Assembly: GCA_910574745.1 (NCBI GenBank)
Contig: CAJTCE010000029.1
Location: 1 to 51,057 of the forward strand
DNA length: 51,057 nucleotides
Direction of reading: 5' to 3'
Origin: Lachnospiraceae bacterium
Lineage (GTDB): Bacteria; Bacillota; Clostridia; Lachnospirales; Lachnospiraceae
This document shows positions 5,777 to 50,795 of this stretch, piece after piece. Both the position numbers and the translations under genes were made by a program. A model generated the notes under the pieces. The model searched no databases. It was not told the origin of the DNA and saw nothing but the letters and a program-made list of their open reading frames with translations. Position 1 is the stretch's first letter, and each line of letters starts with the position of its first letter.

Positions 5777-5857
5777 GAAAGGGGGAATCAAAAAAAGGAT
5801 TGGATAATTGTAATGAAAACCAGAAAAATAAGAACAGAAGCAGAAGGAGGCATCAGT

Positions 5858-6880: not shown

Positions 6881-6911
6881 GGATATCGGATAAAGAAACG
6901 GAGGATTTTTT

Positions 6912-8390: not shown

Positions 8391-8406
8391 AAAGAGGAGA
8401 GTGCGG

Positions 8407-9357: not shown

Positions 9358-9371
9358 AGGAGGCTTATGGA

Positions 9372-10169: not shown

Positions 10170-10175
10170 GGATTT

Positions 10176-30348: not shown

Positions 30349-31776
30349 ATGACAAAAGATTTGACAAAGGGTTCTCCCATGAAGCTGATCCTGGGATTTG
30401 GAGTTCCCTTACTATTCGGATTATTGTTTCAGCAGTTTTACAATATGGTGGATACCATTATTGTGGGAAAAATGCTGGGTGTGGATGCTTTGGCGGCAGT
30501 GGGTTCCACCGGTTCCGTGAATTTTATGATCCTGGGATTTTGTATTGGGCTGTGCAATGGTTTTGCCATTCCCATTGCCCAGAAATTCGGTGCAAAGGAT
30601 GACCACGGTCTTAGAAAGTTTGTGGCAGGCTGCGCATGGGTGTCTGTGATCTTTGCGCTGGTCATAACCGTGGCCGTAGGATTTCTCTGCAAGGATATTC
30701 TGGTCTGGATGCGTACGCCGGACAATATTATGGCAGATGCTTATTCCTACATATTCGTTATATTTATGGGAATTCCGGCAACAATTTTATATAACATGGT
30801 TTCCGGCATTATCAGATCCTTAGGCGACAGCATCATGCCTTTAGTATTCCTGATAATATCCTCTCTGGCAAATATTGTGTTAGACGTAATTTTTATTTTA
30901 CAGTTCGGAGTTTTAGGAGCGGCGCTTGCCACAGTGATCGCCCAGGGGGCATCGGGAATCATAAGCCTTGTTTATCTGGTAAAGAAATATGATATTTTGA
31001 GGATGACCAAAGAAGAGAAGCGGTTTGATATAGACTGCATCAGGACTCTTTGCGGCATGGGCGTACCTATGGGATTACAGTATTCCATTACCGCCATAGG
31101 AAGCGTTATCCTGCAGTCTGCGGTCAATACACTTGGGTCCGATGCGGTGGCGGCTGTTACTGCGGCAAGTAAGATCTGCATGTTTTTATGCTGCCCCTTT
31201 GATGCGATGGGCTCTACCATGGCGACTTACGGCGGGCAGAATATCGGAGCGGGATTTTTAAACAGAATCCATGAGGGAGTCAAAGCATGTTCCAAGCTGG
31301 GCGTAGTTTATTCCCTGATCTGTCTTGGAGTAGTGCTGGTTTTTGGAAAGGAATTGTCCCTGTTGTTTGTTTCCGCTGATGAGACGGCAATTATCGGAAG
31401 GATTCACTATTTTATGGTAGTGAATGTGGTTTTCTACATTCCGCTGGCCTTTGTGAATATTGTGAGATTTATGATACAGGGTTTAGGCTATCCCAATTTT
31501 GCCATTCTTGCAGGGGTTTGTGAAATGGCGGCAAGGGGGATTATGGGATTTGTTTTTGTTCCTCTTTTCGGATTTGCCGCTGCGGGCTTTGCATCTCCGG
31601 CAGCGTGGATATGTGCCGACTGCTTCTTGATCCCGGCGTATTTCCACGTTATGAAAAAGCTGAGGAAGCAGCTGGAAAATAATGAAAATGCCATGAATCC
31701 GGCTAATATAGCCTGTGAAGAGGAGAAAGCCGAAGGAAAATGGCATTGGTCAAGGAAGAAGAAACTCTTACATTAG
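30349..31776 (+). CDS. MATE family efflux transporter
   Basis: A 475-residue integral membrane protein with twelve predicted hydrophobic segments in two homologous halves. It opens with the typical KGSPMKLILGFGVPLLFGLL and FYNMVDTIIVGKMLGVDALAAVGSTG, and the second half begins near residue 240 (GMGVPMGLQYSITAIGSVIL). MATE proteins export cationic drugs or metabolites using a Na+ or H+ gradient. A highly charged C-terminal tail (about 25 residues) follows. GAGGAGG lies 9 bases before the ATG, directly behind a folded leader that may control access. Asparaginase follows after 12 bases, so they may be cotranscribed. Confidence 0.94.
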   Translation: MTKDLTKGSPMKLILGFGVPLLFGLLFQQFYNMVDTIIVGKMLGVDALAAVGSTGSVNFMILGFCIGLCNGFAIPIAQKFGAKDDHGLRKFVAGCAWVSVIFALVITVAVGFLCKDILVWMRTPDNIMADAYSYIFVIFMGIPATILYNMVSGIIRSLGDSIMPLVFLIISSLANIVLDVIFILQFGVLGAALATVIAQGASGIISLVYLVKKYDILRMTKEEKRFDIDCIRTLCGMGVPMGLQYSITAIGSVILQSAVNTLGSDAVAAVTAASKICMFLCCPFDAMGSTMATYGGQNIGAGFLNRIHEGVKACSKLGVVYSLICLGVVLVFGKELSLLFVSADETAIIGRIHYFMVVNVVFYIPLAFVNIVRFMIQGLGYPNFAILAGVCEMAARGIMGFVFVPLFGFAAAGFASPAAWICADCFLIPAYFHVMKKLRKQLENNENAMNPANIACEEEKAEGKWHWSRKKKLLH

Positions 31777-32955: not shown

Positions 32956-33044
32956 TCAGTCAATGAATCCCTGAAACAGGATCCGGCTGTCCATCAGTCC
33001 ATCAGTCAATGGATTCCTTAAACATGATCTGGCTGTCCATCAGT
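32956..33044. repeat. tandem duplication of the 3' end of the LacI gene
   Basis: Two 43-base copies (32956-32998 and 33002-33044) match at 38 positions and are 46 bases apart. The right copy is the last 13 codons plus stop of the minus-strand LacI gene (LMDSQIMFKESID). The left copy, just past the stop, would read LMDSRILFQGFID and stop, in a different frame. This is a local duplication of the gene end, old enough to have diverged. Confidence 0.85.
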
Positions 33045-34018
33045 ATATCCTTGGGCGGTATTTTGCCGGAAGTAAAATACTGGAATAAAACGTTAATGGA
33101 CTGGTATCCCTGATCCCTGGGAGCCTGGGTTATGGCGGCGTTGATGCGTCCGCTTTTCAGGCCCTGTCTGGTTTCATCCGCAAAATCATAAAAAACTGCT
33201 TTAAGGGGACGGTCAATGGAATCCAATACGGAAACCCCCATTTTGGCGTCGCCGCAGAAAAGAATGGAACCCACATCCTTATGCTTTGTCAATTCTTTTA
33301 TCATTAAATCATAGTTGCTTTCTTTATTGTTTGATAGCTCCACTATTTTTTCAAGCCTAAGAGGACAGGGATTGGAATGAAAATAATCCATACATCCCTC
33401 TTTTCTGGCATTATTCCCCAGCATGACGGTAGAAGGGAAGAACGCCATGGCATGACCTTCATCATGGGCGATAAGGTTGAGTAGCATGGCTCCGATCCGG
33501 CCGGAACGGAAATAGTCGCAGTGTATGGAAGAAAAGCAGGAGACCCGGTTTAAATATGTATTTAAAAAGACCACGGGGAAATTTTCTTTTCCCAGCTGCC
33601 GTATCTTTTTGCTGACATCGGTGGAATTAATTGGTACGATGACTATGGCATTGGCCCCTTCCGCAATTGCCTGTTCAATATTGGCAAGCTGCATGGAAGC
33701 GTCGAAATCTTTACAGGGATAAATCTGGACAGACATGCCGTAATCCCTGATTTCCCGTTCTGCCTTCCGGATTCCTTTTATGATCTCGTCAAAAAAGTCA
33801 TTTCCGGTAATATGGAGTATTACGGCAATTTTGTGCTTGCGGGATCTGTTGACTAAGCCGGAAGCGATCTTATTGGGATGATAATCCATTTCCTTGGCCA
33901 GTTCTTTGATTTTTTCAGCCACCTGGGGATTGACTCTGCCCCGGTTTTTCAGCGCACGGTCAACGGTGCCAATAGACACGCCTGCGGCTGCTGCAATATC
34001 TTTTAATGTTGTCGGCAT
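33002..34018 (-). CDS. LacI family transcriptional regulator of the sulfatase operon
   Basis: A 338-residue repressor. The LacI helix-turn-helix is LKDIAAAAGVSIGTVDRALK at residues 4-23, followed by the hinge helix and a sugar-binding-protein-like effector domain (IAVILHITGNDFFDEIIKGI). I chose ATG 34018, 4 bases behind GAGGTGG; an in-frame start at 34063 lies inside a terminator-like hairpin. It is divergent from the organosulfate operon, and an 18-bp palindrome between them is its likely operator. The inducer may be the imported sulfate ester or its desulfated product. Confidence 0.93.
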   Translation of the reverse strand: MPTTLKDIAAAAGVSIGTVDRALKNRGRVNPQVAEKIKELAKEMDYHPNKIASGLVNRSRKHKIAVILHITGNDFFDEIIKGIRKAEREIRDYGMSVQIYPCKDFDASMQLANIEQAIAEGANAIVIVPINSTDVSKKIRQLGKENFPVVFLNTYLNRVSCFSSIHCDYFRSGRIGAMLLNLIAHDEGHAMAFFPSTVMLGNNARKEGCMDYFHSNPCPLRLEKIVELSNNKESNYDLMIKELTKHKDVGSILFCGDAKMGVSVLDSIDRPLKAVFYDFADETRQGLKSGRINAAITQAPRDQGYQSINVLFQYFTSGKIPPKDILMDSQIMFKESID

Positions 34019-34033
34019 AGCTACCACCTCGAT

Positions 34034-34070
34034 AAAAACCTTGTGTAATTTAGTATTGCACAAGGTTTTT
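34034..34070 (-). promoter_or_regulatory. terminator-like hairpin in the leader of the LacI gene
   Basis: A perfect 12-base inverted repeat: AAAAACCTTGTG (34034-34045) and CACAAGGTTTTT (34059-34070), with a 13-base loop. Read on the minus strand it ends in TTTTT just before the GAGGTGG ribosome binding site, so it could act as an attenuator of the regulator gene or as a barrier against transcription in either direction. Confidence 0.6.
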
Positions 34071-34176
34071 CATATTACAAGAACAATGTATTGTATAATA
34101 CATACAAAAAAAATAATAATAAATTATTGAAAATAGACAAATCGCCTGGTTTTTCGAAAAAAAGTAAGGAATATCG

Positions 34177-34234
34177 TTGACATTTTTGCAGGAATGATGT
34201 AAATATAAGTTACCGATGCGTTAACGTTAACGCA
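34177..34234 (+). promoter_or_regulatory. promoter and palindromic operator of the organosulfate operon
   Basis: TTGACA (34177-34182) is a perfect -35; 17 bases later TAAATA (34200-34205) is a weak -10. Immediately behind it lies TGCGTTAACGTTAACGCA (34217-34234), an 18-bp perfect palindrome with the AACGTT centre typical of LacI-family operators. A repressor there would overlap the start of transcription. The first gene begins 52 bases later. Confidence 0.75.
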
Positions 34235-34286
34235 AAGGCGGCAGACATAATACATACACACATTTTAAGATTGGGAGGTAGCCAAT

Positions 34287-35417
34287 ATGAAGAAAAAAAT
34301 TTTAGCGATTATGTTGTCTTTGACCATGGTAATGGGACTGGTAGCGTGCGGCTCCAAGGATTCTGCGGATACGCAAACTCCTGCGGATTCGTCCAATACG
34401 GAAGAGGCAAAGGAGCCTGAGGAAAGCAGCCAGGAAGAGGAGACAAAAACAGAGGAAAAAAAGGAATATGAGGTTTTAAATGTAGGAACCATGGCGCTGA
34501 CTATGGGAATTCCGGTTCTTTATGCACAGGAGCAGGGATATTTTGAGGATGCGGGATTAAACGTCAATATAGAAATATTTGCGACAGGCGCGCCGATCAA
34601 TGAGGCTATTGCGGCAGAACAGATCGACATTGCCGTATCCGGATTCGCATCGGTTTATTCACTGGCAAACGCGGACTGCACATGGCTGGCAGATGTAAAT
34701 ACAACCGGCGGTATGGGACTGTATGCGCGTACCGATTCTGATATTGCAAAATGTCCGGAAGAAAACGGAATGATCGGCAGTGCAGAAACATTAAAGGGAT
34801 TAAAAATTCTCGGCCCCCTTGGTACTGCCGTACAGTATATGACAGAGACTTATGCGGAAAGCTATGGATTAGAGCCTGCGGATTTGGATGAAGTAAATAT
34901 GGAATACGCTTCGGCATATCAGGCGTTTACAACCGGCGAGGGCGACATCATGGCGGCAAATCCTCCCTATTCCTATTCTCTGGAAAACGATGGATATGTA
35001 AGACTTTGTACCTTTGAGGACGCTACGGGAGTTAATATGTGCGACGGATGCTTTGCACGCAATAAGGTAGTGGAAGAAAGACCGGAAGAGGTTCAGCTGT
35101 TTATCAACTGCCTGATCAAAGCAATGGATGATCTGCAGGATGATGAATTGAGAGCAGAGTATACCAGAAAAATTTATGACGAAAATGCCATTTCCTGCTC
35201 CGATGAAGATCTTGCCCATGAGATTGAAGACAGGGATTATGTAGGTACAGAATTTATGTCCGCTCCCGATTACGTTCTCGGAGAGGCGTGGGTAGCCATC
35301 ACGGATTTCCTTGTAAGCGCTGAAAAGATCACAGCGGATAATGCACCCAATGTAGCGGCGTCAATTAATTCCCAGTATGTATCCAATGCTACGGGAGTTG
35401 ATATTAAGGAAAAGTAG
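34287..35417 (+). CDS. ABC transporter substrate-binding lipoprotein (NitT/TauT type)
   Basis: A 376-residue lipoprotein with signal peptide and lipobox LVAC (Cys21), then an acidic Glu/Ser/Thr linker (about residues 25-60), then a SsuA/TauA/THI5-type binding domain that opens with VLNVGTMALTMGIPVLYAQE and contains GYFEDAGLNVNIEIFATGAP. This family binds nitrate, taurine, alkanesulfonates, aromatic sulfonates or pyrimidines. GGGAGG lies 9 bases before the ATG. As the first gene before two permeases, two ATPases and a sulfatase, it most likely binds a sulfated small molecule. Confidence 0.92.
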   Translation: MKKKILAIMLSLTMVMGLVACGSKDSADTQTPADSSNTEEAKEPEESSQEEETKTEEKKEYEVLNVGTMALTMGIPVLYAQEQGYFEDAGLNVNIEIFATGAPINEAIAAEQIDIAVSGFASVYSLANADCTWLADVNTTGGMGLYARTDSDIAKCPEENGMIGSAETLKGLKILGPLGTAVQYMTETYAESYGLEPADLDEVNMEYASAYQAFTTGEGDIMAANPPYSYSLENDGYVRLCTFEDATGVNMCDGCFARNKVVEERPEEVQLFINCLIKAMDDLQDDELRAEYTRKIYDENAISCSDEDLAHEIEDRDYVGTEFMSAPDYVLGEAWVAITDFLVSAEKITADNAPNVAASINSQYVSNATGVDIKEK

Positions 35418-35438
35418 AGAGTTTGAAAACGGAGTGAG

Positions 35439-36230
35439 ATGAAAATGAAAAAGAAGAAAGATTATATTTGGATCTTATCGATTTTGTCAATCGTCATATT
35501 TGCAGGCATCTGGTGGTTTTGCTGTGATGTATTAAAGCTGACCAATTCATCTACATTACCGGGACCGGCAACGGTAGTCAATACATTTATAAAGAAATTA
35601 AGCAGCTCGGCGCCTGACGGCGCCACGCTGCCGGCCCATATTTTTTCATCCCTGAAAATATCCTTGGGTGGCTGGGCGTTAGGAGTGATCATAGGTACGC
35701 CTCTTGGAATATTTATGGCGTGGTACAAAAAGGTTGATTTATTCGTAAGACCCATTTTTGATTTACTTCGTCCGATTCCGGGACTGGCGTGGATTCCCTT
35801 GATGATCATTTTGTTCGGAATAGGCATCACACCCAAGATTGCAACCGTTTTTTTGTCCGCTTTTGTTCCCTGCGTGTTGAATTCCTATACGGGAATCAGA
35901 CAGACCAAGGATGTACATTTGTGGGTAGGACAGACCTTTGGAGCGGATGATACCCAGATGCTTGTACACATAGCCATTCCCACGGCGCTTCCCATGATCA
36001 TGACCGGCGTCCGCGTGGCTTTGGGAGCGGCCTGGACCTGTATTGTTGCGGCGGAAATGCTGGCGTCAACGAAAGGTTTGGGATATATGATCCAGCAGGC
36101 CAGGGGCATATACAGACCGGATATCATTATCTGCGGCATGATTGCCATTGGCGCCATCGGGGCGGTGTTTTCAGGAATCCTTTCTTTAATAGAAAATGCC
36201 ATTGTGAAAGGAGTGCGTAGGGATGGTTAA
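35439..36230 (+). CDS. ABC transporter permease (SsuC/TauC type), first of two
   Basis: A 263-residue membrane protein with six hydrophobic segments. The cytoplasmic coupling loop is visible as GAAWTCIVAAEMLASTKGLG near residues 194-213, and LRPIPGLAWIPLMIILFGIG near residue 108 is a family hallmark. GGAG lies 4 bases before ATG 35439 and 10 bases before the in-frame ATG 35445, so either could be used. It overlaps the second permease gene by 8 bases. The two permeases probably form a heterodimer. Confidence 0.92.
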   Translation: MKMKKKKDYIWILSILSIVIFAGIWWFCCDVLKLTNSSTLPGPATVVNTFIKKLSSSAPDGATLPAHIFSSLKISLGGWALGVIIGTPLGIFMAWYKKVDLFVRPIFDLLRPIPGLAWIPLMIILFGIGITPKIATVFLSAFVPCVLNSYTGIRQTKDVHLWVGQTFGADDTQMLVHIAIPTALPMIMTGVRVALGAAWTCIVAAEMLASTKGLGYMIQQARGIYRPDIIICGMIAIGAIGAVFSGILSLIENAIVKGVRRDG

Positions 36231-37017
36231 AAAATTTAATGCAAAAGCGAAAAATTATGAAAAAACAATCTGCGCCATGATTGCCATTGCCGTTTTCCTT
36301 TGCGTTTGGCAGATTGTAGTGAGCTTTACAAAGGCCGGGATGGTCTTGGCGGGTCCCATAGAAACATTGAAAATGTTTTTTGTTTCCATCGTAAAACCCG
36401 TGGGAACCCATACCATCGAAGGACATATTGTCTGGAGCTTAAGCCGCGTTTTAGTAGGATTTGTGATCGGTTCTTTTGCGGGCATCGTTCTTGGAATCCT
36501 GATGGGCTGGTTTAAACCGGTTTCCGCATTGTTCCGCCCGATTTTTGAGATTTTAAGACCCATTCCGCCCATTGCATGGATACCGTTATCCATTGTATGG
36601 TTCGGTTTGGGGGAGGCTTCCAAATATTTCCTGATCATGTATTCGGCTTTTTGCGCAGTAACCATGAACGCCTATTCCGGCGTCAGAAGCGTGGATCCGG
36701 AGCTTATGGGTGCCGCAAAAATGCTGGGAGCAAATAACAGGCAGGTGTTTACCACCATTGTCCTTCCCTCGTGCGTACCGCAGATTTTTGCAGGACTTCA
36801 GATTGCCGTAGGAACATCCTGGGCAACGGTTGTAGCCGCCGAAATGGTACGTTCCCAGGAAGGCGTGGGCTGGGTCATTATCAAAGGCCAGGACAGCAAC
36901 AGCACGGTGCAGATTCTTGTGGGAATCGTTGCAATTGGCATTGTGGGATATATTCTGGCAGTATCCATGAGGGCCATTGAGGCAAGACTTTGCAGATGGA
37001 GCGTGAGAGGCAAATGA
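36223..37017 (+). CDS. ABC transporter permease (SsuC/TauC type), second of two
   Basis: A 264-residue membrane protein, homologous to the preceding permease in layout: LRPIPPIAWIPLSIVWFGLG and the coupling loop GTSWATVVAAEMVRSQEGVG are at matching places. Most importers of this class use two copies of one permease, so a second diverged copy points to an asymmetric channel. GGAG lies upstream inside the previous gene, and the stop overlaps the ATPase start as ATGA. Confidence 0.92.
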   Translation: MVKKFNAKAKNYEKTICAMIAIAVFLCVWQIVVSFTKAGMVLAGPIETLKMFFVSIVKPVGTHTIEGHIVWSLSRVLVGFVIGSFAGIVLGILMGWFKPVSALFRPIFEILRPIPPIAWIPLSIVWFGLGEASKYFLIMYSAFCAVTMNAYSGVRSVDPELMGAAKMLGANNRQVFTTIVLPSCVPQIFAGLQIAVGTSWATVVAAEMVRSQEGVGWVIIKGQDSNSTVQILVGIVAIGIVGYILAVSMRAIEARLCRWSVRGK

Positions 37018-37769
37018 GTAAAGAGATAATCATATGTGAAAATTTAAATAAAACCTTTGAAACATCCAGAGGCAGTGTTCCTGTCATTGACAATGTGTCT
37101 TTGACGGTGCTTAAAAATGAGCTGCTTGTGCTTTTCGGACCTGGACAATGCGGTAAATCTACAATGATCAATTGTATGGCGGGTTTGGAGCCTGCTACCG
37201 GAGGAAGTGTTTTGGTGGGCGGGCAGAAGGTTGTAAAGCCCGGACCGGACAGAGGCGTAGTATATCAGCGTATGGCGTTGTTTCCTTGGCTTACGGTAAT
37301 GGGGAACGTGGAATACGGCCCCAAGGTCAGAGGCGTGCCCAAGAAAGAAAGAAGGGAAAGGGCTCAGCACTATATCGAGCTGGTAGGCTTAAAAGGATTT
37401 GAAAATTCCTATCCGAACCAGCTTTCGGGAGGTATGCAGCAGCGTGTGGGAATCGCCCGCGCTTACTGTAATGAGCCGGACGTGCTTTTTATGGATGAGC
37501 CCTTTGGACATCTGGATGCCCAGACCCGTTATCTGATGCAGGAAGATCTGATGAAGATATGGGAAAAGGAAAAAAGAACCATTGTTTTTGTAACAAACAA
37601 TATAGAGGAAGCAATTTATCTTGCAGACAGGATTGTTGTGATGACCAATTGTCCTACGACAATTAAAAAGGAATATGAAATCCGCCTTCCCAGACCCCGG
37701 AATTATGTTGACACTGAATTCTTAAAATTGAGAGAAGAAATCAGCGCGGTCGTTGATAAGGCATTATAA
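37014..37769 (+). CDS. ABC transporter ATP-binding protein, first of two (lacks H-loop His)
   Basis: A 251-residue ATPase of the SsuB/TauB type. Walker A is GPGQCGKST (42-50), the signature LSGGM (137-141) is intact, and Walker B ends in DE (161-162). The switch motif reads VTNNIEEA, so the usual catalytic His is Asn195. With the partner ATPase, which has the His but a broken signature, one ATP site keeps all canonical parts and the other combines both defects. ATG 37014 is used because GAGAGG precedes it and the start overlaps the permease stop; an in-frame ATG at 36990 would add eight residues. Confidence 0.93.
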   Translation: MSKEIIICENLNKTFETSRGSVPVIDNVSLTVLKNELLVLFGPGQCGKSTMINCMAGLEPATGGSVLVGGQKVVKPGPDRGVVYQRMALFPWLTVMGNVEYGPKVRGVPKKERRERAQHYIELVGLKGFENSYPNQLSGGMQQRVGIARAYCNEPDVLFMDEPFGHLDAQTRYLMQEDLMKIWEKEKRTIVFVTNNIEEAIYLADRIVVMTNCPTTIKKEYEIRLPRPRNYVDTEFLKLREEISAVVDKAL

Positions 37770-37780
37770 GGAGGCCCAGG

Positions 37781-38527
37781 ATGGAAAATAAAGATATTAT
37801 TTTACATGTAGATCATATGACAAAATGCTTCGGGGATTTAAAGGTATTGAACGATGTTTCCTTTGATGTCCATAAAGGCGAATTTTTGTGTATTGTAGGC
37901 CCTACCGGATGTGGGAAGACCACATTTTTAAACTGTATTACGGGATTGTATGATCTGACGGACGGACAGATTCTGGTTCATGGAGAGCCTGTCAATACAA
38001 AAAAACATAATATTGCTTATATTTTTCAGGAATACTCCACCATGTCCTGGCTTACGGTAGAGGAAAACGTGGCGTTTGGACTCAAGATGAAAAAGATGCC
38101 GAAGGATGTGATCAAAAAGGAAGTGGCGGAAGTACTGGAAATGGTAGGCCTGACAAAGTACAAGGACTATTATCCCGTCGAATTATCTACCAGTATGCTT
38201 CAAAGGGTCGTGATCGCCCGTGCGTTTGCGGTTAAACCGGATATTCTTTTGATGGATGAGCCTTACGGCCAGCTGGATGTGGAGCTGCGGTTCCGTTTAG
38301 AGGATGAATTGATCAAATTGTGGAAAAGACTGGGCACTACGGTAATCTTCATTACACATAACATAGAAGAAGCCGTCTATTTAAGCGAAAATATTCTGGT
38401 TCTGACCAATAAGCCCACAAGTATTAAGGAGCGGCTTAAGAACGACCTGCCAAGACCGAGAAATGTGGTAGAGCCAAGCTTTATTGATATGAGAAATAAA
38501 GTGACGGAATTGATTAAATGGTGGTAA
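37781..38527 (+). CDS. ABC transporter ATP-binding protein, second of two (degenerate signature)
   Basis: A 248-residue ATPase of the SsuB/TauB type. Walker A GPTGCGKTT (40-48), Walker B with DE (159-160) and the switch His193 (ITHNIEEA) are canonical. The signature, normally LSGGM, reads LSTSM (135-139). It therefore complements the first ATPase: its own Walker site faces the partner's intact signature, while its faulty signature faces the partner's His-less site. AAGGAGG lies 9 bases before the ATG, and 11 bases separate the genes. The last codons overlap the sulfatase ribosome binding site. Confidence 0.93.
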   Translation: MENKDIILHVDHMTKCFGDLKVLNDVSFDVHKGEFLCIVGPTGCGKTTFLNCITGLYDLTDGQILVHGEPVNTKKHNIAYIFQEYSTMSWLTVEENVAFGLKMKKMPKDVIKKEVAEVLEMVGLTKYKDYYPVELSTSMLQRVVIARAFAVKPDILLMDEPYGQLDVELRFRLEDELIKLWKRLGTTVIFITHNIEEAVYLSENILVLTNKPTSIKERLKNDLPRPRNVVEPSFIDMRNKVTELIKWW

Positions 38528-38538
38528 GGAGGAAAAAG

Positions 38539-40425
38539 ATGAAGGCAGTCATGTTAATGTTTGATTCCCTGAACCGGGAAATGCTGAAGCCTTACGGATG
38601 TGATTGGACGAAAACCCCTAATTTTCAGAGACTTGCAGAAAAAAGCGTGAGATTTAACCAATGTTATGCGGGCAGTCTCCCCTGTATGCCGGCAAGAAGG
38701 GAGCTGCAGACAGGAAGATATAATTTCCTGCATCGCAGCTGGGGACCTATAGAGCCTTTTGACGATTCCATGCCGGAGCTTTTAAAAAGAAACGATGTTT
38801 ATACCCATCTGATATCCGATCACGTACATTATTGGGAAGACGGAGGCGCAACCTATCATTACCGCTACAACTCATGGGAGAATATCAGAGGCCAGGAGGG
38901 GGATAAATGGAAATGCCTTCCCGAGCTTTTAGAGCCCTGCGATGAAACTAAGCTGCAGAATAAGGACGGTCTGTATTTTCATGCAACCAAGGATCTGCAA
39001 AGACATGATGCGGTAAACAGGCAATTTATGAAAAGAGAAGAGGATACCGCGCTTTCAAAAACCATTGAGGGCGGTCTGGAGTTTATCGATGCAAACTGTA
39101 AATGCGACAGATGGTTTTTACAGATAGAATGCTTTGATCCTCACGAACCCTTTACCTGTCCTGAAAGCTACCAGGAGCTTTATCCCGATGATTATGAAGG
39201 ACCCCTTAAGGATTGGCCGCCCTATCATCATGTGACGGAGGATGAAAAGACCAGGAAGCATTATAAAAATCAATATGCGGCTCTTTTGAGCATGTGCGAC
39301 AAATATTTAGGAAAGCTTTTGGATAAATTTGACGAGTTAGACTTATGGAAGGATACCATGCTCATTGTAAACACGGATCATGGTTATCTTTTGGGGGAGC
39401 ATGGCTGGTGGAGCAAGATCGTCATGCCGTGCTATGATGAAATCGTACATACGCCACTCTTTATCCATGACCCCAGATTCCAAAAAGACGGGGAAGTAAG
39501 GGAAGAAATCGTGCAGACGATCGATCTGCCCGCCACTCTTCTTGAGTTTTTCGGCGTTCCGTGTCCTTCGGATATGCAGGGAAAGCCTATACGGAAGGTT
39601 ATAGAGGAGGATAAACCGATCCGCGATTATGCGCTGTTTGGAATCCATGGAGCTCATGTCAGCGTATTTGACGGCAAATATGTTTATATGAAGGCGCCGG
39701 TATCGGAAAGGAACAACCAGCCTTTATTTGAATATACCACAATGCCCATGCATATGCGCAATTTGTTTTCCGTAGAGGAGCTTAAAAAAGCACAGGCGGT
39801 TTCAGGCGATACTTTCGGCTTTACAAAGGGATGTCCTGTATGGAAAATTCCCAAAGGGAACGGAAACGGTTCTAAAGACTTCAGCAATCTGCTCATTAAC
39901 GGAAGAGACAGCGAGGAAGCAAAGCATATTGACAATAACAGCATGGTAAACGCAGCAAATTTCGGGGATAAGCTATTTGACATGGAAAATGACCCCCATC
40001 AGGAAAATGAGCTTCATGACGTCAAAATAGAAGCGGCCATGGCGAATATTCTGCAAAGGGCGATGTTAGAAAATGATTGTCCGATAGAGCAGTTTGAAAG
40101 AATCGGAATAACGAAAGACCGTAAGATTACCGAAGAGGATATTGAGCTTTTGTATGAAATGGAAAAGAAATATGCAGAGCCGGATATTCTTCCCCTGCAT
40201 CCGTGGACAAAAGGGGCGGTTAATATTTACCATGCCCTGATGAAGTTCATTCCCAAAGAGGATAAGGAAAGAGTAATTGATAAGCTAAAGGAAGAGATAC
40301 CCCGTCATTTATGCGACGGACAGGTGGTGCCGGATTCCATATGGCAGCTGATTCCCTTAGTCATAGCGGAAGAATTTGTGGATATGGTGCAGTATTTTGT
40401 GGGGCTTTCGGGAAGAACCTCGTAA
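38539..40425 (+). CDS. cytoplasmic Cys-type sulfatase
   Basis: A 628-residue arylsulfatase-family (S1 type) hydrolase that cleaves sulfate esters. The active-site signature is SLPCMPARRELQTGR: Cys49 should be oxidised to formylglycine, with Pro51 and Arg53 completing CxPxR. Metal ligands are expected at Asp9 and at Asp280-His281 (NTDHGYLLGEHG). After the catalytic domain (about 1-450) comes a helical C-terminal extension of some 170 residues. There is no signal peptide, so it acts inside the cell. ATG 38539 is 6 bases behind AAGGAGG. Importer upstream and exporter plus maturase downstream support a sulfate ester as substrate; a phosphonate monoester is a less likely option. Confidence 0.92.
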   Translation: MKAVMLMFDSLNREMLKPYGCDWTKTPNFQRLAEKSVRFNQCYAGSLPCMPARRELQTGRYNFLHRSWGPIEPFDDSMPELLKRNDVYTHLISDHVHYWEDGGATYHYRYNSWENIRGQEGDKWKCLPELLEPCDETKLQNKDGLYFHATKDLQRHDAVNRQFMKREEDTALSKTIEGGLEFIDANCKCDRWFLQIECFDPHEPFTCPESYQELYPDDYEGPLKDWPPYHHVTEDEKTRKHYKNQYAALLSMCDKYLGKLLDKFDELDLWKDTMLIVNTDHGYLLGEHGWWSKIVMPCYDEIVHTPLFIHDPRFQKDGEVREEIVQTIDLPATLLEFFGVPCPSDMQGKPIRKVIEEDKPIRDYALFGIHGAHVSVFDGKYVYMKAPVSERNNQPLFEYTTMPMHMRNLFSVEELKKAQAVSGDTFGFTKGCPVWKIPKGNGNGSKDFSNLLINGRDSEEAKHIDNNSMVNAANFGDKLFDMENDPHQENELHDVKIEAAMANILQRAMLENDCPIEQFERIGITKDRKITEEDIELLYEMEKKYAEPDILPLHPWTKGAVNIYHALMKFIPKEDKERVIDKLKEEIPRHLCDGQVVPDSIWQLIPLVIAEEFVDMVQYFVGLSGRTS

Positions 40426-40474
40426 GGTTTCTTTTTATAGAAAACGCTGACCAAGGGCCGGAGGGATGAAAGCC

Positions 40475-41263
40475 ATGATATATATGTTATTTTTAACTGT
40501 CTGCTTTTTAGCCTCGGCGATAGGGGCAATCTGCGGAATCGGAGGAGGCGTTATCATCAAGCCTGTTCTGGATGCTTTTGGGATATTGGGAGTGCCTTCT
40601 ATCAGCTTTCTGTCAGGCTGCACGGTTCTGGCCATGACTACTTATTCGGTGGGAAAGAGCAGGCTTGGTAAGAAAAGCGGATTTGAAGCAAAAACGGGAA
40701 TCCCCCTTTCGGCGGGCGCAGTGGCGGGAGGAATTATAGGAAAATGGATATTTTCCTATATTTCTTCTTTCAGCGCCGACAAAGACCGCATAGGGGCGGT
40801 TCAGGCGGGATGCCTTATTGTTGTGACCATAGGCACTTTGATGTATACTTTGTACAAGAACAAGATAAAGACTTATCAGGTAAGAAATGCTTTTTCCTGC
40901 ATGATGATCGGCCTGATATTGGGAATCCTTTCTTCCTTTCTTGGAATAGGAGGGGGTCCCATTAATCTGATCGTTTTATTTTTCTTTTTCTCCATGTCAA
41001 CCAAAACGGCGGCGGAAAATTCCTTATATATTATCTTTTTTTCGCAGTTATCCAGCCTTTTGTCAACACTGGCAGCGGGGAGCGTTCCGGAATTTTCTTT
41101 TGAAATACTGGCGTTTATGGTATCCGGAGGAATACTTGGAGGAATAGCGGGAAGGTTTATTAACAAAAAGATTTCCGAAGCTATGGTAGAGCGATTGTTT
41201 ATCGGGGCAATGTCCGTTATCATATTGATCAATATTTATAATTTGTGGAAATTTACAGCATAA
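40475..41263 (+). CDS. TSUP family anion transporter (TauE/SafE, putative sulfate/sulfite exporter)
   Basis: A 262-residue membrane protein with about eight hydrophobic segments in two halves, each starting with a Gly-rich loop: GAICGIGGGVIIKPVLDAFG near the N-terminus, and SFLGIGGGPINLI in the second half. The TSUP family includes exporters of sulfite, sulfoacetate and related anions. ATG 40475 is 10 bases behind GGAGG; ATG 40466 is in frame but touches that site. Following a sulfatase gene by 49 bases, it is well placed to remove the inorganic sulfate (or sulfite) released inside the cell. Confidence 0.88.
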   Translation: MIYMLFLTVCFLASAIGAICGIGGGVIIKPVLDAFGILGVPSISFLSGCTVLAMTTYSVGKSRLGKKSGFEAKTGIPLSAGAVAGGIIGKWIFSYISSFSADKDRIGAVQAGCLIVVTIGTLMYTLYKNKIKTYQVRNAFSCMMIGLILGILSSFLGIGGGPINLIVLFFFFSMSTKTAAENSLYIIFFSQLSSLLSTLAAGSVPEFSFEILAFMVSGGILGGIAGRFINKKISEAMVERLFIGAMSVIILINIYNLWKFTA

Positions 41264-41328
41264 ATGGAATGGATGAATGAAAGCATGTAAATTGAAAATG
41301 TATAATTAGTAAAGAGGGTGGAAGACAA

Positions 41329-42438
41329 ATGCCTCCTATTCATGTTCTCATGAAGCCTGCATCGGGAGCCTGCAATATGTCCTGCGACTATTGCTTTTAC
41401 TGTGATGAGGCAGCCAAGAGAAAACAGGAATTTTTTGGATTAATGAGCGAGCCGACCTTAAAGAATGTGATTCGTAAAACAATGCTGCGGGGAGAAGGCT
41501 TTGTTTCCTATGCCTATCAGGGAGGAGAGCCTACCCTGAGAGGGTTGGATTTTTTTAAGAAGGCTTTAGAGTACCAAAGACAATATAATAAAAACGGAAT
41601 TGCGGTTCATAATGCCCTCCAGACCAACGGATATTTTCTGGATGAGGAATGGTGCCGTTTTTTTAAAGAAAATCATTTTCTCATAGGGATATCCGTAGAC
41701 GGAATAAAGGAAACACACGATTGCTGCAGACATGATAAAAATGGCGGCGGCACTTACGACAGGGTCGTGAAAAACATAAAAATGCTGGATCAGTATGGAG
41801 TTGATTACAATATCCTTACGGTAGTCAACAAGGCGGTGGCAGAAAACATCACGGGAATTTACGAAGCCTATGGAAAGAAGCGATGGATGTACCAGCAGTA
41901 TATCGCATGTCTGGACCCGTTAGGAGAAGCTCACGGCAAAAATGTCTATGCTTTGCTGCCAAAGCAGTATGGGGAATTTCTGATCAGATTGTTTCATTTG
42001 TGGTATGACGATTGGAAACGGGGAAGACAGCCCTATATCCGCCAGTTTGATAATTTTATAGGAATATTGAAAGGCATCAGTCCGGAATCATGTGAACAAA
42101 GGGGAATATGCGGGCTTCAAAATGTTGTGGAAGCGGACGGAAGCGTGTATCCCTGTGATTTTTATATGACCGATGAATACCGGCTGGGAAATTATAATGA
42201 AAACCGTCAGGATGAGATTGATAAGAAACGAGAAGAAATCGGGTTTATAGAAAGGTCCGGGAAGCTTTCTAAAGAATGTACGGGCTGCGCTTACTATAGT
42301 CTTTGCCGGGGCGGCTGCCAGAGGAACCGGGATTTTCAGGAAAAAACCGGATATTTCCAAAACTATTTTTGCGAAAGCTACCGGATGTTTTTTGACGCCT
42401 GTCTGGAAAAGATGAAAGAAGTTGCCGCTGGGATGTAA
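41329..42438 (+). CDS. anaerobic sulfatase-maturating enzyme (radical SAM, SPASM)
   Basis: A 369-residue radical SAM enzyme that oxidises the sulfatase active-site Cys to formylglycine without oxygen. The SAM cluster is bound by Cys15, Cys19 and Cys22 (CNMSCDYC), YQGGEPTLRG is the SAM-site GGE motif, and the C-terminal SPASM part holds two more clusters (CGLQNVVEADGSVYPCDFY and CTGCAYYSLCRGGC). The sequence closely follows the Clostridium perfringens enzyme, including the Asp of YPCDFY thought to take the proton. GAGGGTGG lies upstream. Being last in the operon it matures the sulfatase encoded three genes... two genes upstream. Confidence 0.95.
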   Translation: MPPIHVLMKPASGACNMSCDYCFYCDEAAKRKQEFFGLMSEPTLKNVIRKTMLRGEGFVSYAYQGGEPTLRGLDFFKKALEYQRQYNKNGIAVHNALQTNGYFLDEEWCRFFKENHFLIGISVDGIKETHDCCRHDKNGGGTYDRVVKNIKMLDQYGVDYNILTVVNKAVAENITGIYEAYGKKRWMYQQYIACLDPLGEAHGKNVYALLPKQYGEFLIRLFHLWYDDWKRGRQPYIRQFDNFIGILKGISPESCEQRGICGLQNVVEADGSVYPCDFYMTDEYRLGNYNENRQDEIDKKREEIGFIERSGKLSKECTGCAYYSLCRGGCQRNRDFQEKTGYFQNYFCESYRMFFDACLEKMKEVAAGM

Positions 42439-43338: not shown

Positions 43339-45075
43339 TCACGATAAATGATGATTTATGTGAGAGGATATAAGACCGGGTTCTTTTTGGGAAATGTAAG
43401 ATTCCAGACTGTTCTTGTCAATCAGCGCGGGAACAACTCCTTCTCTCGAAATGCAAAATCCTGCGGCATATGTTGCAATGCGGATAGCTTCTTTTAGGGT
43501 ATAGCCGTAAAGCAAATAAGAAGCCAAGGCACTGGCAAAGGCGTCACTGGCTCCGGTAGCATCAACAGAAGTGAATGATGCGGCAGGAAAAGTATCTTCC
43601 CATTCTCTGGTTTTCACATAGCTGCCTCGTTCTCCACGTGTAACAATGACTGTCTCCACACCATACTCCAACAGTAAGTTGGCGCGTTCTTCCAGTGTGG
43701 CTTTCTCGGGAAACAGTACTTGCAGCTCGTCTTCATTGGGAATAATAATGTCTACATAAGTGAATAATTCTTCCGGAAAGCGGCTGCATGCGGAAGGTTT
43801 TAGTATCGTTTTTGCATGATGCTTTTGAGCAATACGGCAGGCTTCCAGTACAGCTTCAATAGGAATTTCCGATTGAATCAGACAGTATCCTGTATTCTGA
43901 AACAGATGCTCGCTTTTACGGATGTCGTCGGCAGTACAAATATTGTTTGCACCTGCCAGAATGGAAATCATAGAATGTCCGCCGGATTCAACAAAGATAT
44001 AGGCTTTTCCGGTATTTGCATTAAAACAGCGTTTGACGCCAAAAGAGTCTACACCGGATTCGTTCAGTGTGCGGTAAATGGTATCCGAATCCAAATCAGA
44101 ACCCACATTGCCGATTAAGGCAACATGATGCTCCAGCTTAGAAGCGCCGATGGCCTGATTGATCCCTTTGCCGCCCGGATATACGGAGGAAGTGGAAGCA
44201 GTAACGGTTTTGCCGGTATCAGGCATTTGTGAGACATTAAGATAGATATCTAAGTTAATGTTTCCCACAACCAAAATTTTAGGGGCGTTTAATTTGCTGG
44301 GAATACTAATGGTTGTTTCGTTATCCAGTTTGAATTCCTGTGAAAAGGGAGAAACCGGAGATTCGGGAACGTCAATAAGGGAAATTAATTTTTGGCAAAG
44401 ATATGCGCCAAAATCCCCGTTTAACACGGTATATGTGGAAATTTCGGGTATAGAGGGAGCTTCCGACATATCATTTTTTAGGGAAATCAAAGAAAAATCT
44501 TCCGGAATATTGTAGTGAAGGGAATTCATCAATTGATAAAATTCCCAAGCTTTCAAATAGTGGGAAGAAACGATTCCGCTTATTTGCTGCGTATTGATCT
44601 TATAAATTAAAGAATCATTTAATTCTTGAAAGATAAGAGTTTCATCCAATGGAAGCTGATTATCAAACAGACATTTCTGATATCCTGATAAAAATGCATC
44701 TTTTCGCCTTCCGTCTGTCAAAAGACAGGCGATTTTTGTGTGTTTACAGGAAATAAGCCCCTGTGTAATCTGGTATCCGAAGGTTTCGTAAGGAAGTTGG
44801 ATGGAATCTGTTCCTCCGTAAGGACCGATTGCAATGAAAGGGATATTGGCATTTTCTATGTGGTGGGTGTGGGAGAGACTTTGCTCATTGAGAGGTTCCC
44901 ATATAATGCCGTCTACATGATTGCAACACAGAGAGGTAATGTTCTTTAATTCCTGTTCGGGAGTAGAACAAGTGTTGCAGATCAGTGTGTTGTATCCATT
45001 GGCTTGTGCGGTTTTTATAATGCCGTCCAGTGTACTATTTGAATCCTCCTTCTTACCATTGTCGGAGCCGATCTG
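43339..45075 (-). pseudogene. LacI-type regulator/ribokinase fusion lacking its DNA-binding domain
   Basis: An uninterrupted frame from 45075 to the stop at 43339 (578 codons) without an ATG near its start; the in-frame stop TGA at 45076-45078 precedes it. The first 270 residues resemble a LacI effector domain (DGIIKTAQANGYNTLICNTC, then NHVDGIIWEPL). The rest is a full PfkB/ribokinase: LVVGNINLDIYL, GGKGINQAIG and DATGASDAF with the catalytic Asp. The helix-turn-helix and first strand are gone, replaced by a remnant of another gene. A TTG at 44721 could still start a product with part of the regulator domain plus the kinase. Sugar kinase activity may survive. Confidence 0.7.
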
Positions 45076-45248: not shown

Positions 45249-46564
45249 TTAATTTTTGCCTTTTTTGCAGGTTCTTTTATATAATATCATTCCAATTACG
45301 AAAACCGTAAATTCCGTAATTGGGTAAGATAGCCATACTCCTGTCATTCCTAAAATATAAGAAAGAAAAAAAGTCATTGGAATAACAATAAAAAATCCTC
45401 TTGATAAAGAAACAATCTGTGCCGGTAATGCTTTTTCGGTTGATGTAAAATGCACGGATAGAATAATGTTAAAGCCAACAAAGGGAATAGCGATAAAATA
45501 TAGTATAAGTCCGGCCGCAGCAATTTGTTGTAATTGAGCGTTTCGTTCGCTGTTAAATATTTCTACGATTGGATTAGCAATCAATAAAAATGTGAAATAA
45601 ATGCAACTTGAAAGGATCAACATGGTTGCGATCGCATATTTTAATATTCTTTTGATTTCTTCATTTTTTCCATATCCATAAGCCCGGCTGGTAAGAGGCT
45701 GTATTCCTTGTGCGATTCCTGTGTAAATAGATGTAACTACAAGTGACAGATTGGCAACGATACCATAAGCGGCTACACCGATATTTCCCCGCAATCGAAG
45801 AATGATATAATTAAACACGATCATTACAATCCCGGAAGCAATTTCCGTAATGAAAGAGGGAATACCCAGCAAAATAGTATTTCGGGTCAATTCGCGAGAG
45901 GGTTTTGTTTTCAATAAATGAAAATTATTTTGTTTTCCAATCCAATGCTTTGACATAATGCACATGCTGATTATGGGGGCAAGACCAGTTGCCAGCACAG
46001 CGCCTAATATGCCCATTTGCAATGGGAATATAAGTATATAGTCCAATATAACATTTGATAAACTGCCTATCAGCATAGCTGCCATAGCAAGTCTTGGATT
46101 GCAGTCGTTTCTTACAAAGCAAATTAGAACATCATTCATCATAAAAAACGGGGCAAAAAGTAAAATAATTTGTAAATAAGTTTTTGTCATGCTAAATACT
46201 TCATTATCAGCGCGCAATAAATGGGTCAGATTTTCAGACAAAAAAGCGCCCATAAGCATGAACGATATAGATAAGATGACAGTAAGATATATTACGTTTG
46301 TAAATGTTCTGTTTGCATTTTGGTATTTTTTTTGTCCTCTGAAAATAGAATATTTTATTGCGCCCCCATCCCTAACATTAGGCCGCTTCCGTGAATAAAG
46401 CTGTATATAGGAATAGCTAAATTAAGTGCAGTTAGACCGTTTGCTCCCAAACCGTTAGACACAAAAAAAGTATCAGCAAGAATATAGCAGGATAAACCCA
46501 GCATACCCGATATATTTAGAGCTACATATTGATAAAATTCTTTGAATAGTTCTTTTGATTTCAT
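45249..46564 (-). pseudogene. MATE family efflux transporter broken by one frameshift
   Basis: Two frames make one MATE protein of about 440 residues. The first (46564 to 46355) has MKSKELFKEFYQYVALNISG and ends in GLMLGMGAQ. The second carries the rest to 45249, with the FMLMGAFLSENLTHLLRADN region and the second half from about 45900. Adding one base to the five-C run at 46363-46367 joins them as GMGGAIKYSIF, which fits the family. The long second frame is otherwise intact, so the break is recent or is a base-calling error. GAGAGG lies just before ATG 46564. Confidence 0.8.
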
Positions 46565-49310: not shown

Positions 49311-49391
49311 TTCTGCCTCCAAGGGTTAATAGGATATTTGCTTTTCATCATTAAGCTGACTTTAAAAGTATTTCTATTTTTCATTTTCTGC

Positions 49392-49422
49392 TTGACCGTA
49401 CAGTTACTGTATAGTTTATGGT
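49392..49422 (+). promoter_or_regulatory. MerR-type promoter of the MATE gene
   Basis: TTGACC (49392-49397) and TATGGT (49417-49422) are separated by 19 bases, the long spacing that MerR regulators correct by bending DNA. Inside the spacer lies TACAGTTACTGTA (49399-49411), a perfect palindrome around a central T. The MATE start is 42 bases downstream and the MerR gene is divergent. Confidence 0.75.
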
Positions 49423-49463
49423 ACTATACACAGAAAACAAATGCAAGACATACGGAGGAAAAT

Positions 49464-50795
49464 ATGGAAGCTCAAAATGTATATTTAAAACCTGTCACTC
49501 TGAGAAATGTTTTTAAATTTGCTGTTCCCACCATCGCCATGACGGTATTCATGTCCTTCTATACGATGGTTGACGGGTTGTTTGTATCGAATCTGATTGG
49601 AACGGACGCCTTGTCCGCAATTAATCTGACTGCACCGGTCATTCAACTTGTTTGCGCTGTTTCCACCATGCTTGCTACCGGAGGAAGCGCGGTAATCATG
49701 AAAAAGATGGGAGAGCAGAGGATAGAGGAAGCAAGGGAGGATTTTACTTTTCTGATTCTTGTCAATGCGGTAGTGGGAATCGTGATGTGCGCACTTGGAT
49801 ATCTGACCATGGATTCTATTTTCGGAGGAATGAACTTATCCCCCGATGTAAAGCGCTATTGCGTAGAATATCTAAGCCGCTATCTGATATTCACAGTTCC
49901 CATTTTGCTAATGAATAATTTTACTCTTTACATGATTGCCAGTGAAAAAGCGACTCTTTCTCTTATATGTTCTGTGGCGGGCGGTGTTTTGAACATGATT
50001 CTTGATTATGTGTTCATTGCAGGCTTTCATATGGGAATCAGTGGCGCGGCAGTTGCTACGGGGCTTGGGTATTCCGTAACGGCAGTGGCAGGACTGGTAG
50101 TCTTTGCCCGGAAAAACAACCTTCTTCATTTCAGGAAGCCGGTATGCCGGTTTAAAGTTCTGGCAAATGCCGCCACAAACGGATGCTCTGAAATGGCAAC
50201 GGCTCTCGTTACGGGAATCATTACCATGATGTTTAACTGGACAATGCTGCACTATGTGGGGGAGGACGGCGTTGCGGCGGTAACCATCATCATGTATGTG
50301 CTGATGTTTGTAAGCTCTTTGCATACCGGTTATTCTTACGGGGTGGCGCCTATGATCAGTTTTTATTATGGGGAAAAGAACCGGGATAAATTGAAAAAGC
50401 TCATTGCTATCAGCATAAAAGTCATTTCGGTCATTTCGGTTATGATGATGGCGGCATCCTTTATACTCACAAAACCGCTGGTATCCGTCTTTGCCCGTCC
50501 GGAAAATTCGGTGTATGACCTTGCGGTAACGGGAAACCGAATCTGTACCGGTGCTTTGTTATTTATCGGTTTTAATATTTTTGCCAGTGGCATGTTTACG
50601 GCGTTATCCAACGGAGTAGTTTCCGCAGTTCTTGCTTTTTCAAGATCCTTTGTGTTTATGCTGATCACTATGCTTGTTCTTCCGGCTATCCTTGGGGTAG
50701 AAGGAATCTGGCTGGCAACGCCTGTGGCGGAGCTGATGGCTCTGGTCTTGTCGACGGTTATGTTTTTGAAGTACAGGAAAAGATACCGGTATTAG
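49464..50795 (+). CDS. MATE family efflux transporter
   Basis: A 443-residue membrane protein with twelve predicted segments. It starts with the family's FKFAVPTIAMTVFMSFYTMV and DGLFVSNLIGTDALSAINLT; the second half begins near residue 230 with GCSEMATALVTGIITMMFNW. I chose ATG 49464 behind ACGGAGG; the frame is open 126 bases further up, but that part overlaps the MerR-type promoter. It probably exports drugs or metabolites and is induced by the divergent MerR protein. Confidence 0.93.
   Translation: MEAQNVYLKPVTLRNVFKFAVPTIAMTVFMSFYTMVDGLFVSNLIGTDALSAINLTAPVIQLVCAVSTMLATGGSAVIMKKMGEQRIEEAREDFTFLILVNAVVGIVMCALGYLTMDSIFGGMNLSPDVKRYCVEYLSRYLIFTVPILLMNNFTLYMIASEKATLSLICSVAGGVLNMILDYVFIAGFHMGISGAAVATGLGYSVTAVAGLVVFARKNNLLHFRKPVCRFKVLANAATNGCSEMATALVTGIITMMFNWTMLHYVGEDGVAAVTIIMYVLMFVSSLHTGYSYGVAPMISFYYGEKNRDKLKKLIAISIKVISVISVMMMAASFILTKPLVSVFARPENSVYDLAVTGNRICTGALLFIGFNIFASGMFTALSNGVVSAVLAFSRSFVFMLITMLVLPAILGVEGIWLATPVAELMALVLSTVMFLKYRKRYRY

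What the first reader, a model, noticed from the sequence alone, without database searches (positions are those of the whole stretch)
33002..42438. Self-contained organosulfate import, cytoplasmic desulfation and anion export operon
Seen: divergent LacI regulator, lipoprotein, two permeases, two ATPases, a sulfatase without signal peptide, a TSUP/TauE exporter and the sulfatase-maturating radical SAM enzyme in one co-directional run with short gaps or overlaps. Known: Cys-type sulfatases need the maturase in anaerobes, NitT/TauT importers bind small anions including sulfonates, and TSUP proteins export sulfite-like anions. Inferred: an intact sulfate ester is imported, desulfated inside and the sulfate expelled. 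Characterised gut sulfatases are often exported, so an intracellular importer-linked system would be unusual. There are no enzymes for the carbon skeleton, so the organic part may be the nutrient, a signal or waste.
Basis: partly seen in the sequence, partly recalled or inferred. Interest (0 to 1): 0.8.

Follow-up and report, generated by a model that had tools for sequence, protein, structure and literature searches.

The report
Uptake-linked intracellular sulfatase operon
This bacterium, from a group common in the gut, carries a compact, self-regulated set of genes that appears to pull a small sulfate-bearing molecule into the cell, clip off the sulfate inside and push the sulfate back out, a route already known in outline but here built from a new combination of parts.

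Summary
In detail: nine genes at 33002-42438, a divergent LacI regulator and eight co-directional genes with gaps of -28 to +65 bases. The sulfatase is Cys-type and cytosolic by sequence; nine putative catalytic residues are invariant in 56 homologues. It is the genome's only sulfatase, beside the only maturase over its cut-off. Importer plus sulfatase recurs in seven related loci. A 16-base palindrome before the binding-protein gene has one site per genome, suggesting a one-operon regulon. The sulfatase family pairs with seven importer classes, with at least 13 switches on its tree. A TauE or chromate-type transporter lies within 5 kb of 13 of 55 members. No ATP-sulfurylase was found in 8 of 8 genomes, so sulfate is probably waste and the organic part the gain. 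TSUP and maturase are optional, near the operon in 2 and 4 of 7 loci. The substrate is unknown. Verdict: new variant of a known kind.

The parts
33002..34063 (-). LacI-family regulator, divergent; probable local repressor
   Evidence: PF00356 LacI 50.3 bits and PF13407 Peripla_BP_4 106.6 bits; no NCBIfam equivalog over its cut-off among the 25 listed
34177..34205 (+). promoter TTGACA-17-TAAATA, by eye; not listed by the consensus scan, whose second hexamer must end in T
   Evidence: sequence; a TTGACA-like hexamer with a 17-base spacer is seen by eye in L010, L011, L013, L014, L015, L018
34218..34233 (.). candidate operator, palindrome GCGTTAACGTTAACGC
   Evidence: identical in L010, L013, L014, L015, 1 mismatch in L011 and L018, 3 in L012; at up to 1 mismatch one site in each of 7 of 9 genomes, none in the other 2; 19-base form in 2 of 397 family genomes, both at this operon, reversed control in 1 of 397
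34287..35417 (+). lipoprotein substrate-binding protein, NMT1/SsuA-like
   Evidence: PF09084 61.4 bits; lipobox LVAC at residues 18-21 (N-terminus printed, read by eye); SsuA_fam 59.8 bits against a cut-off of 163.5
35439..36230 (+). ABC permease 1 (NitT/TauT type)
   Evidence: PF00528 99.1 bits; TauC-like 161 bits, below the 342 cut-off
36223..37017 (+). ABC permease 2 (NitT/TauT type)
   Evidence: PF00528 90 bits
36990..37769 (+). ABC ATPase 1
   Evidence: PF00005 98.8 bits
37781..38527 (+). ABC ATPase 2
   Evidence: PF00005 110 bits
38539..40425 (+). cytosolic Cys-type S1 sulfatase (frame open from 38518; likely start ATG 38539)
40466..41263 (+). TauE/TSUP anion transporter, putative sulfate exit
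   Evidence: PF01925 101.5 bits; 8 hydrophobic segments; 55-66% identical to the TSUPs of 7 other sulfatase loci, 27% to the genome's other TSUP
41329..42438 (+). anaerobic sulfatase-maturating radical SAM/SPASM enzyme (anSME)
   Evidence: TIGR03942 373.1 bits, cut-off 349.45; full-length match to anSME 4k37, E 1.3e-99

Best explanation
It is an import-first organosulfate-use operon. The lipoprotein binds a small sulfated molecule outside the cell, and a NitT/TauT-type ABC importer with two different permeases and two different ATPases brings it in intact. The neighbouring anSME converts Cys56 of the sulfatase to formylglycine, and the sulfatase hydrolyses the sulfate ester in the cytosol. The freed sulfate is not assimilated by any route I could find and leaves through the TSUP protein. 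The desulfated organic part stays inside as the useful product. LacI represses the operon from one palindrome just downstream of the promoter until substrate or product binds. Shown: gene content, sulfatase with intact active-site residues and no hydrophobic N-terminus, adjacent maturase that is the only one over cut-off, single conserved palindrome, conserved importer-sulfatase pairing, repeated pairing of this sulfatase family with importers and, less often, anion transporters. Inferred: sulfate ester as substrate, direction of TSUP transport, repression by LacI, organic part as the gain. My guess for the substrate is a sulfated sugar or small glycoside (about 0.5) over an aryl or alkyl sulfate (about 0.35).
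For: Conserved block in 7 related loci including a Gemmiger (Oscillospiraceae). Only sulfatase and only anSME over cut-off in the genome; 9 of 9 relatives searched carry an anSME over cut-off somewhere. Nine putative catalytic residues invariant in 56 of 56, no hydrophobic N-terminus in any. The D16/C56/H104/D287/H288 set agrees, by my alignment, with Asp14, Cys54, His104, Asp296, His297 described for choline sulfatase (PMC5870055 passages). Palindrome unique per genome in 7 of 9 genomes, and found in 2 of 397 family genomes, both at this operon. Across 55 family members, 40 have an importer, 13 a TSUP (7) or chromate-type transporter (6), 15 an anSME, 43 at least one of these within 5 kb. Importer class changes at least 13 times over 40 labelled tree tips; the NitT type needs 3 changes. 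TSUP belongs to a group found mostly at sulfatase loci. No ATP-sulfurylase in 8 of 8 genomes.
Against: TSUP lies near the operon in only 2 of 7 loci with a full-length sulfatase (window, L014), and in L014 a divergent LysR gene intervenes; anSME in 4 of 7. In L014 (R. inulinivorans) the LacI and second permease each match in two overlapping pieces, so these genes may be broken or misassembled there. CUT1 importers are not commoner near the sulfatases than far (13 hits in 506 kb, 8 in 296 kb); TSUP is 8 against 3, the far hits partly in longer operons. 12 of 55 members have none of importer, exporter or anSME within 5 kb, some at contig ends. Two TSUPs of sulfatase loci are only 32-35% identical to the window's, and one 55% relative (L087) lies on a contig with no listed sulfatase. 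The metal-site pattern is shared with phosphonate monoester hydrolases, so a sulfate ester is not proven. R. inulinivorans has a strong PF01507 hit (119 bits, with ferredoxin domains). No carbon-skeleton gene is in the operon. The SBP model was poor (pLDDT 56), so nothing was learned about its ligand.
Confidence: 0.7

Rival explanations
1. Sulfur scavenging: the organosulfate is taken up for its sulfur, as in the Pseudomonas ats system, and the TSUP carries something else.
For: Same combination of sulfonate-type ABC importer plus sulfatase as the ats cluster described for Pseudomonas sp. UW4 (PMC3596284 passages). R. inulinivorans has one strong PAPS_reduct protein (119 bits).
Against: ATP-sulfurylase was found in none of 8 genomes (the search rang in 5 of 14 control genomes). 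In the own genome the two PF01507 hits are a DUF3440 protein and a short weak-scoring protein. LacI control, not CysB/LysR; the palindrome has no other site in the genome at up to 1 mismatch. CysN and sulfite reductase were not searched.
Confidence: 0.1
2. The enzyme is a phosphonate monoester or phosphodiester hydrolase of the same superfamily, and the transporter handles a phosphonate.
For: Metal-site pattern D...D-H as in PMH and choline sulfatase. PehA is the best NCBIfam hit (117.5 bits) though far below its cut-off of 900. PMHs also carry the modified Cys (PMC5870055 passages).
Confidence: 0.08
3. Detoxification or signalling: the cell desulfates a host or dietary conjugate (aryl or steroid sulfate) without using the organic part; the desulfated part diffuses out.
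For: No catabolic genes in the operon and no second palindrome site at up to 1 mismatch, so nothing else in the genome appears to be under this regulator.
Against: A costly ABC importer for a toxin is hard to explain. Sister and more distant members of the sulfatase family sit with GPH symporters, GH3, PTS-GAT and TctABC genes, which look nutritional.
Confidence: 0.1

Closest known systems
Bifidobacterium breve UCC2003 glycosulfatase cluster (Bbr_0851-0853; GlcNAc-6-sulfate)
   Same: Transporter gene, sulfatase gene and an 'arylsulfatase regulator (Fe-S oxidoreductase)' atsB gene side by side (gene table in PMC6045583, passages); a review states that the sulfatases are intracellular, serve GlcNAc-6-S and rely on cross-feeding (PMC7326374, passage)
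   Different: There the transporter is annotated as a glucose/fructose transport protein, not a NitT/TauT-type ABC importer; the passages name no TSUP; substrate known there, unknown here. The primary paper (Egan 2016) was not held
Pseudomonas ats cluster (atsACBR-sftR-atsK-sftP)
   Same: Sulfatase next to an ABC importer whose binding protein is of the aliphatic-sulfonate type (PMC3596284 passage)
   Different: LysR regulator; also an alkylsulfatase and a TonB receptor. That it serves sulfur starvation, and lacks a radical SAM maturase and TSUP, is recalled, not checked
Choline sulfatase (BetC) of Sinorhizobium meliloti
   Same: Class I sulfatase with a D/D/H metal site and C-X-P-X-R motif (PMC5870055 passages); NCBIfam hit 106.5 bits
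   Different: Score far below the equivalog cut-off of 433; no choline-use genes in the operon here
Bacteroides sulfatases for glycosaminoglycans
   Same: S1 sulfatase fold, anSME-dependent (PMC9067506 passages); BT4656 is the best phmmer hit in the PDB
   Different: In the B. [quoted passage not shown] here the importer-sulfatase unit implies import first

Membership tests
S1 Cys-type sulfatase | C/S-x-P-x-R maturation motif | tested here: met
   CMPAR in the window; C, P and R in 56 of 56 homologues
S1 Cys-type sulfatase | sulfatase fold with metal site and catalytic residues | tested here: met
S1 Cys-type sulfatase | hydrolyses a sulfate ester | not testable with these tools
   no assay
Choline sulfatase (TIGR03417) | score over curated cut-off | tested here: not met
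   106.5 against 433.45 bits
PehA phosphoric/sulfuric ester hydrolase (NF045661) | score over curated cut-off | tested here: not met
   117.5 against 900 bits
Anaerobic sulfatase-maturating enzyme (TIGR03942) | score over curated cut-off | tested here: met
   373.1 against 349.45 bits; 372.7
Aliphatic sulfonate binding protein SsuA (TIGR01728) | score over curated cut-off | tested here: not met
   59.8 against 163.5 bits: related, not a member
NitT/TauT-type ABC importer (wider group) | NMT1-type binding protein, BPD_transp_1 permease, ABC ATPase together | tested here: met
   Pfam hits over cut-off for all five genes
TSUP/TauE transporter | PF01925 over cut-off | tested here: met
   101.5 against 32.6 bits
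TSUP/TauE transporter | exports sulfite or sulfate | not testable with these tools
   only clustering with sulfatases was tested
Pseudomonas-type sulfur-scavenging ats system | sulfate feeds assimilation | tested here: inconclusive
   ATP-sulfurylase found in 0 of 8 genomes; own PF01507 hits do not look like CysD/CysH, but R. inulinivorans has a 119-bit hit; CysN and sulfite reductase not searched

The most novel reading that the evidence does not exclude
Lachnospirales share a general 'import first, desulfate inside, expel sulfate' strategy built on one family of cytosolic sulfatases. Its importer is exchanged freely among NitT/TauT, CUT1, CUT2 and Opp ABC systems, GPH symporters, TctABC and PTS-GAT systems, and its sulfate exit alternates between TSUP and paired chromate-type transporters. 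Such bacteria would be hidden consumers of host and dietary organosulfates and local suppliers of free sulfate to sulfate reducers.
Probability: 0.4. Interest if true: 0.65.

Novelty: new variant of a known kind. Interest (0 to 1): 0.5.

Why it matters
Organosulfates (mucin sugars, bile, steroid and phenol conjugates) are abundant in the gut (general knowledge), and in the Bacteroides GAG pathways read about here it is desulfated monomers that enter the cytoplasm. If this reading holds, Lachnospirales desulfate after uptake, with sulfatases that share one active site and swappable importers. The importers then become handles for predicting which organosulfate each species takes. Free sulfate expelled by these cells could feed sulfide-forming neighbours. 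In this genome, one sulfatase with one maturase makes a clean genetic test case.

Tried and rejected
Substrate from the SBP: the AlphaFold model was poor (pLDDT 56.1, 8 rows) and no structure search was made with it. Its closest PDB relatives by profile were a putative exported protein (3qsl), SsuA (3uif), TauA (6ssy) and THI5 (4h6d), all distant. Substrate from the sulfatase: PDB matches spread over glycan, aryl and choline sulfatases and PMHs within a few Z units, so no specificity is claimed; residues 103-164 are modelled below pLDDT 50. The part after about residue 542 is barely tested. TSUP had no PDB sequence relative at E up to 1.

Psychrobacter slf operon as a parallel was rejected: a different sulfatase class with a signal peptide (passages). 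Recent gain judged by base composition: operon GC 0.443 against 0.432 for the rest of the window, no signal. None of 8 congeners has a match to the sulfatase at E up to 0.001, so gain or loss stays open. A consensus scan for promoters and terminators found no excess (27 against 22.6 and 11 against 10.6 expected).

Mended count: the neighbourhood script used a wrong representative for the chromate-type transporter (a sulfatase that ends where that gene begins), which gave 17 exporter loci. It was corrected and rerun, which gives 13 of 55 (TSUP 7, chromate-type 6); importer (40), anSME (15) and 'any' (43) did not change. For that reason the probability of the novel case was lowered from 0.45 to 0.4. 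One search was repeated inside with the same result.

Literature: nine searches. I saw no description of this operon or of this sulfatase family in those listings, but one search returned nothing and most subscription papers are not held. Papers were seen as listings or passages only; none was read whole.

Rows dropped: the tree and neighbourhood count use 55 rows besides the window. Three of the 48 matches were not fetched. The importer labels cover 40 tips (39 rows with a single importer class, plus the window).
Full report
What is there. The nine genes exist as described. Eight run on the + strand with gaps of 21, -8, -28, 11, -10, 40 and 65 bases; the LacI gene is divergent. The sulfatase probably starts at ATG 38539 rather than 38518: an AGGAGG lies just upstream and that Met is aligned in at least 55 of 56 homologues. 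The window lies in a 4.35 Mb draft genome of 106 contigs, 99.6% complete. Its family is probably Lachnospiraceae: G347, listed as same family, appears to be the genome behind the named L013 (Lachnospiraceae). The closest operons are in Mediterraneibacter, Roseburia inulinivorans and other Lachnospiraceae, and in a Gemmiger (Oscillospiraceae). None of 8 other genomes of its genus has a match to the sulfatase.

The maturase. It scores over the anSME cut-off (373.1 against 349.45) and aligns end to end with the solved anSME 4k37 (E 1.3e-99). It is the only anSME over cut-off in the genome; the one other hit is far below (110.4 bits). All 9 relatives searched have an anSME over cut-off somewhere, which may explain why some operons lack one nearby.

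The regulator site. The palindrome GCGTTAACGTTAACGC at 34218-34233 lies just downstream of a TTGACA-17-TAAATA promoter seen by eye. It is identical in L010, L013, L014 and L015, has one mismatch in L011 and L018, and three in L012, whose LacI is only 38% identical. Allowing one mismatch, it occurs once in each of 7 genomes and in neither G429 nor G434 (the L012 and L017 hosts); the reversed control gave none in these 9. Its 19-base form was found in 2 of 397 family genomes, both at this operon, while the reversed control matched in 1 of the 397. The same two are the only ones of the 397 with a sulfatase match over 70% identical. I read this as a one-operon regulon. Repression itself is inferred.

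Conservation. SBP, two permeases, two ATPases and sulfatase are kept in the same order in L010-L015 and L018; L017 is cut by its contig, and L018 within the sulfatase. In L014 the LacI and second-permease matches are each in two pieces. In the 7 loci with a full-length sulfatase (window, L010-L015) TSUP is nearby in 2 (window, L014) and anSME in 4 (window, L011, L012, L014). L010 has only about 1 kb downstream. L013 has instead a LysR gene and a chromate-type transporter pair. So importer plus sulfatase is the core, and exporter and maturase are add-ons.

The wider family. Homologues with E up to 1e-60 occur in 31 of 397 family genomes, the own one included. Among 55 members with neighbourhoods, within 5 kb, 40 have an importer, 13 a TSUP (7) or chromate-type transporter pair (6), 15 an anSME and 43 at least one of these; no member has both kinds of exporter (which corrects). 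Importers are GPH (12), NitT (9), CUT1 (6), TctA (6), PTS-GAT (3), CUT2 (3) and Opp (2); one member has two. One representative each of GPH, PTS-GAT, TctA, TctC, CUT2 and OppC, and five chromate-type genes, were confirmed by Pfam. The two CUT1 representatives are BPD_transp_1 permeases whose finer naming is by eye. Near against far hits (506 and 296 kb): chromate-type 12 and 0, GPH 13 and 1, NitT 18 and 2, TctA 6 and 0, CUT2 6 and 0, anSME 15 and 2, TSUP 8 and 3, CUT1 13 and 8. CUT1 is thus not enriched, and TSUP only weakly by this measure. On the tree, 40 labelled tips need at least 13 changes of importer class, and NitT against the rest needs 3. A count over 9 whole genomes gives anSME within 5 kb of a sulfatase in 9 of 11 cases (0.27 expected) and TSUP in 5 of 21 (0.51 expected). 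These genomes were chosen for holding the sulfatase, and two of the five TSUP cases (own and R. inulinivorans) are at this operon, so the figure is optimistic; one of the others is a sulfatase-TSUP-anSME triple in Citrobacter.

The exporter. The window TSUP is 55-66% identical to the TSUPs of 7 other sulfatase loci (L014, L033, L045, L095, L103, L121, L134), 32-35% to those of two more (L024, L109), and 27% to the other TSUP of its own genome. One 55% relative (L087) is not on a contig with a listed sulfatase. TauE of Cupriavidus is called a sulfite exporter in the title of a paper cited by PMC8873060 (passages); that this subgroup carries sulfate is inference.

Fate of the sulfate. No ATP-sulfurylase was found in 8 of 8 genomes (the search rang in 5 of 14 controls). 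PF01507 matched in 5 of 8 genomes. In the own genome the hits are a DUF3440 protein and a weak short one, so no CysD or CysH is apparent; in R. inulinivorans one 580-residue protein with ferredoxin domains scores 119 bits. CysN and sulfite reductase were not searched. This makes sulfur scavenging unlikely here and leaves the organic part as the gain.

Substrate. Unknown. For a sugar-like substrate: LacI control, and GPH, GH3, PTS-GAT and CUT2 partners of relatives, the sister clade of five being GPH-linked in 4 (weak support, 87/52). For an aryl or alkyl sulfate: the NitT/TauT importer and the ats precedent.

Comparison with the known. In B. breve UCC2003 a transporter gene, a sulfatase gene and an arylsulfatase-regulator/Fe-S gene lie at Bbr_0851-0853 (PMC6045583, passages), and a review states that the sulfatases are intracellular and serve GlcNAc-6-S (PMC7326374, passage). 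Pseudomonas sp. UW4 has atsACBR (PMC3596284, passage). The kind is therefore known. What differs here is the NitT/TauT importer with two different permeases and ATPases in an anaerobe with anSME, the TSUP in the unit, the single-site LacI control, and a sulfatase family with exchangeable importers. In the nine literature searches I saw no description of these points.

Noticed in passing
L092, L094, L101: Three relatives place the sulfatase beside a PTS EIIC-GAT permease (ascorbate/galactitol type) and an IIB; IIC, IIB and a IIA were confirmed by Pfam in L094 only. A substrate phosphorylated and then desulfated, such as a sulfated sugar or ascorbate-2-sulfate, would be a sharp hypothesis.
   Followed up: partly
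L013 6292-8487; L092, L094, L113, L126, L131: Paired chromate-type transporters sit within 5 kb of the sulfatase in these six loci, three of them with a LysR gene beside the pair (L013, L113, L126); none of the six has a TSUP within 5 kb: a possible alternative sulfate exit.
   Followed up: partly
L016 host genome G433:C11:364722-367897: In Citrobacter freundii a different sulfatase, a TSUP and an anSME lie next to each other.
   Followed up: partly
window 4553-11924: CoA-transferase III, then a CUT2-type ABC importer (Peripla_BP_4, ABC ATPase, BPD_transp_2), an esterase and an S15 peptidase/hydrolase in one run.
   Followed up: no
window 43339-44721 (-): PfkB kinase whose listed frame carries about 140 extra N-terminal residues with no Pfam hit that look by eye like the end of a LacI-type binding domain.
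   Followed up: no
window 30349-31776, 45249-46259, 49338-50795: Three MatE transporters within 21 kb.
   Followed up: no
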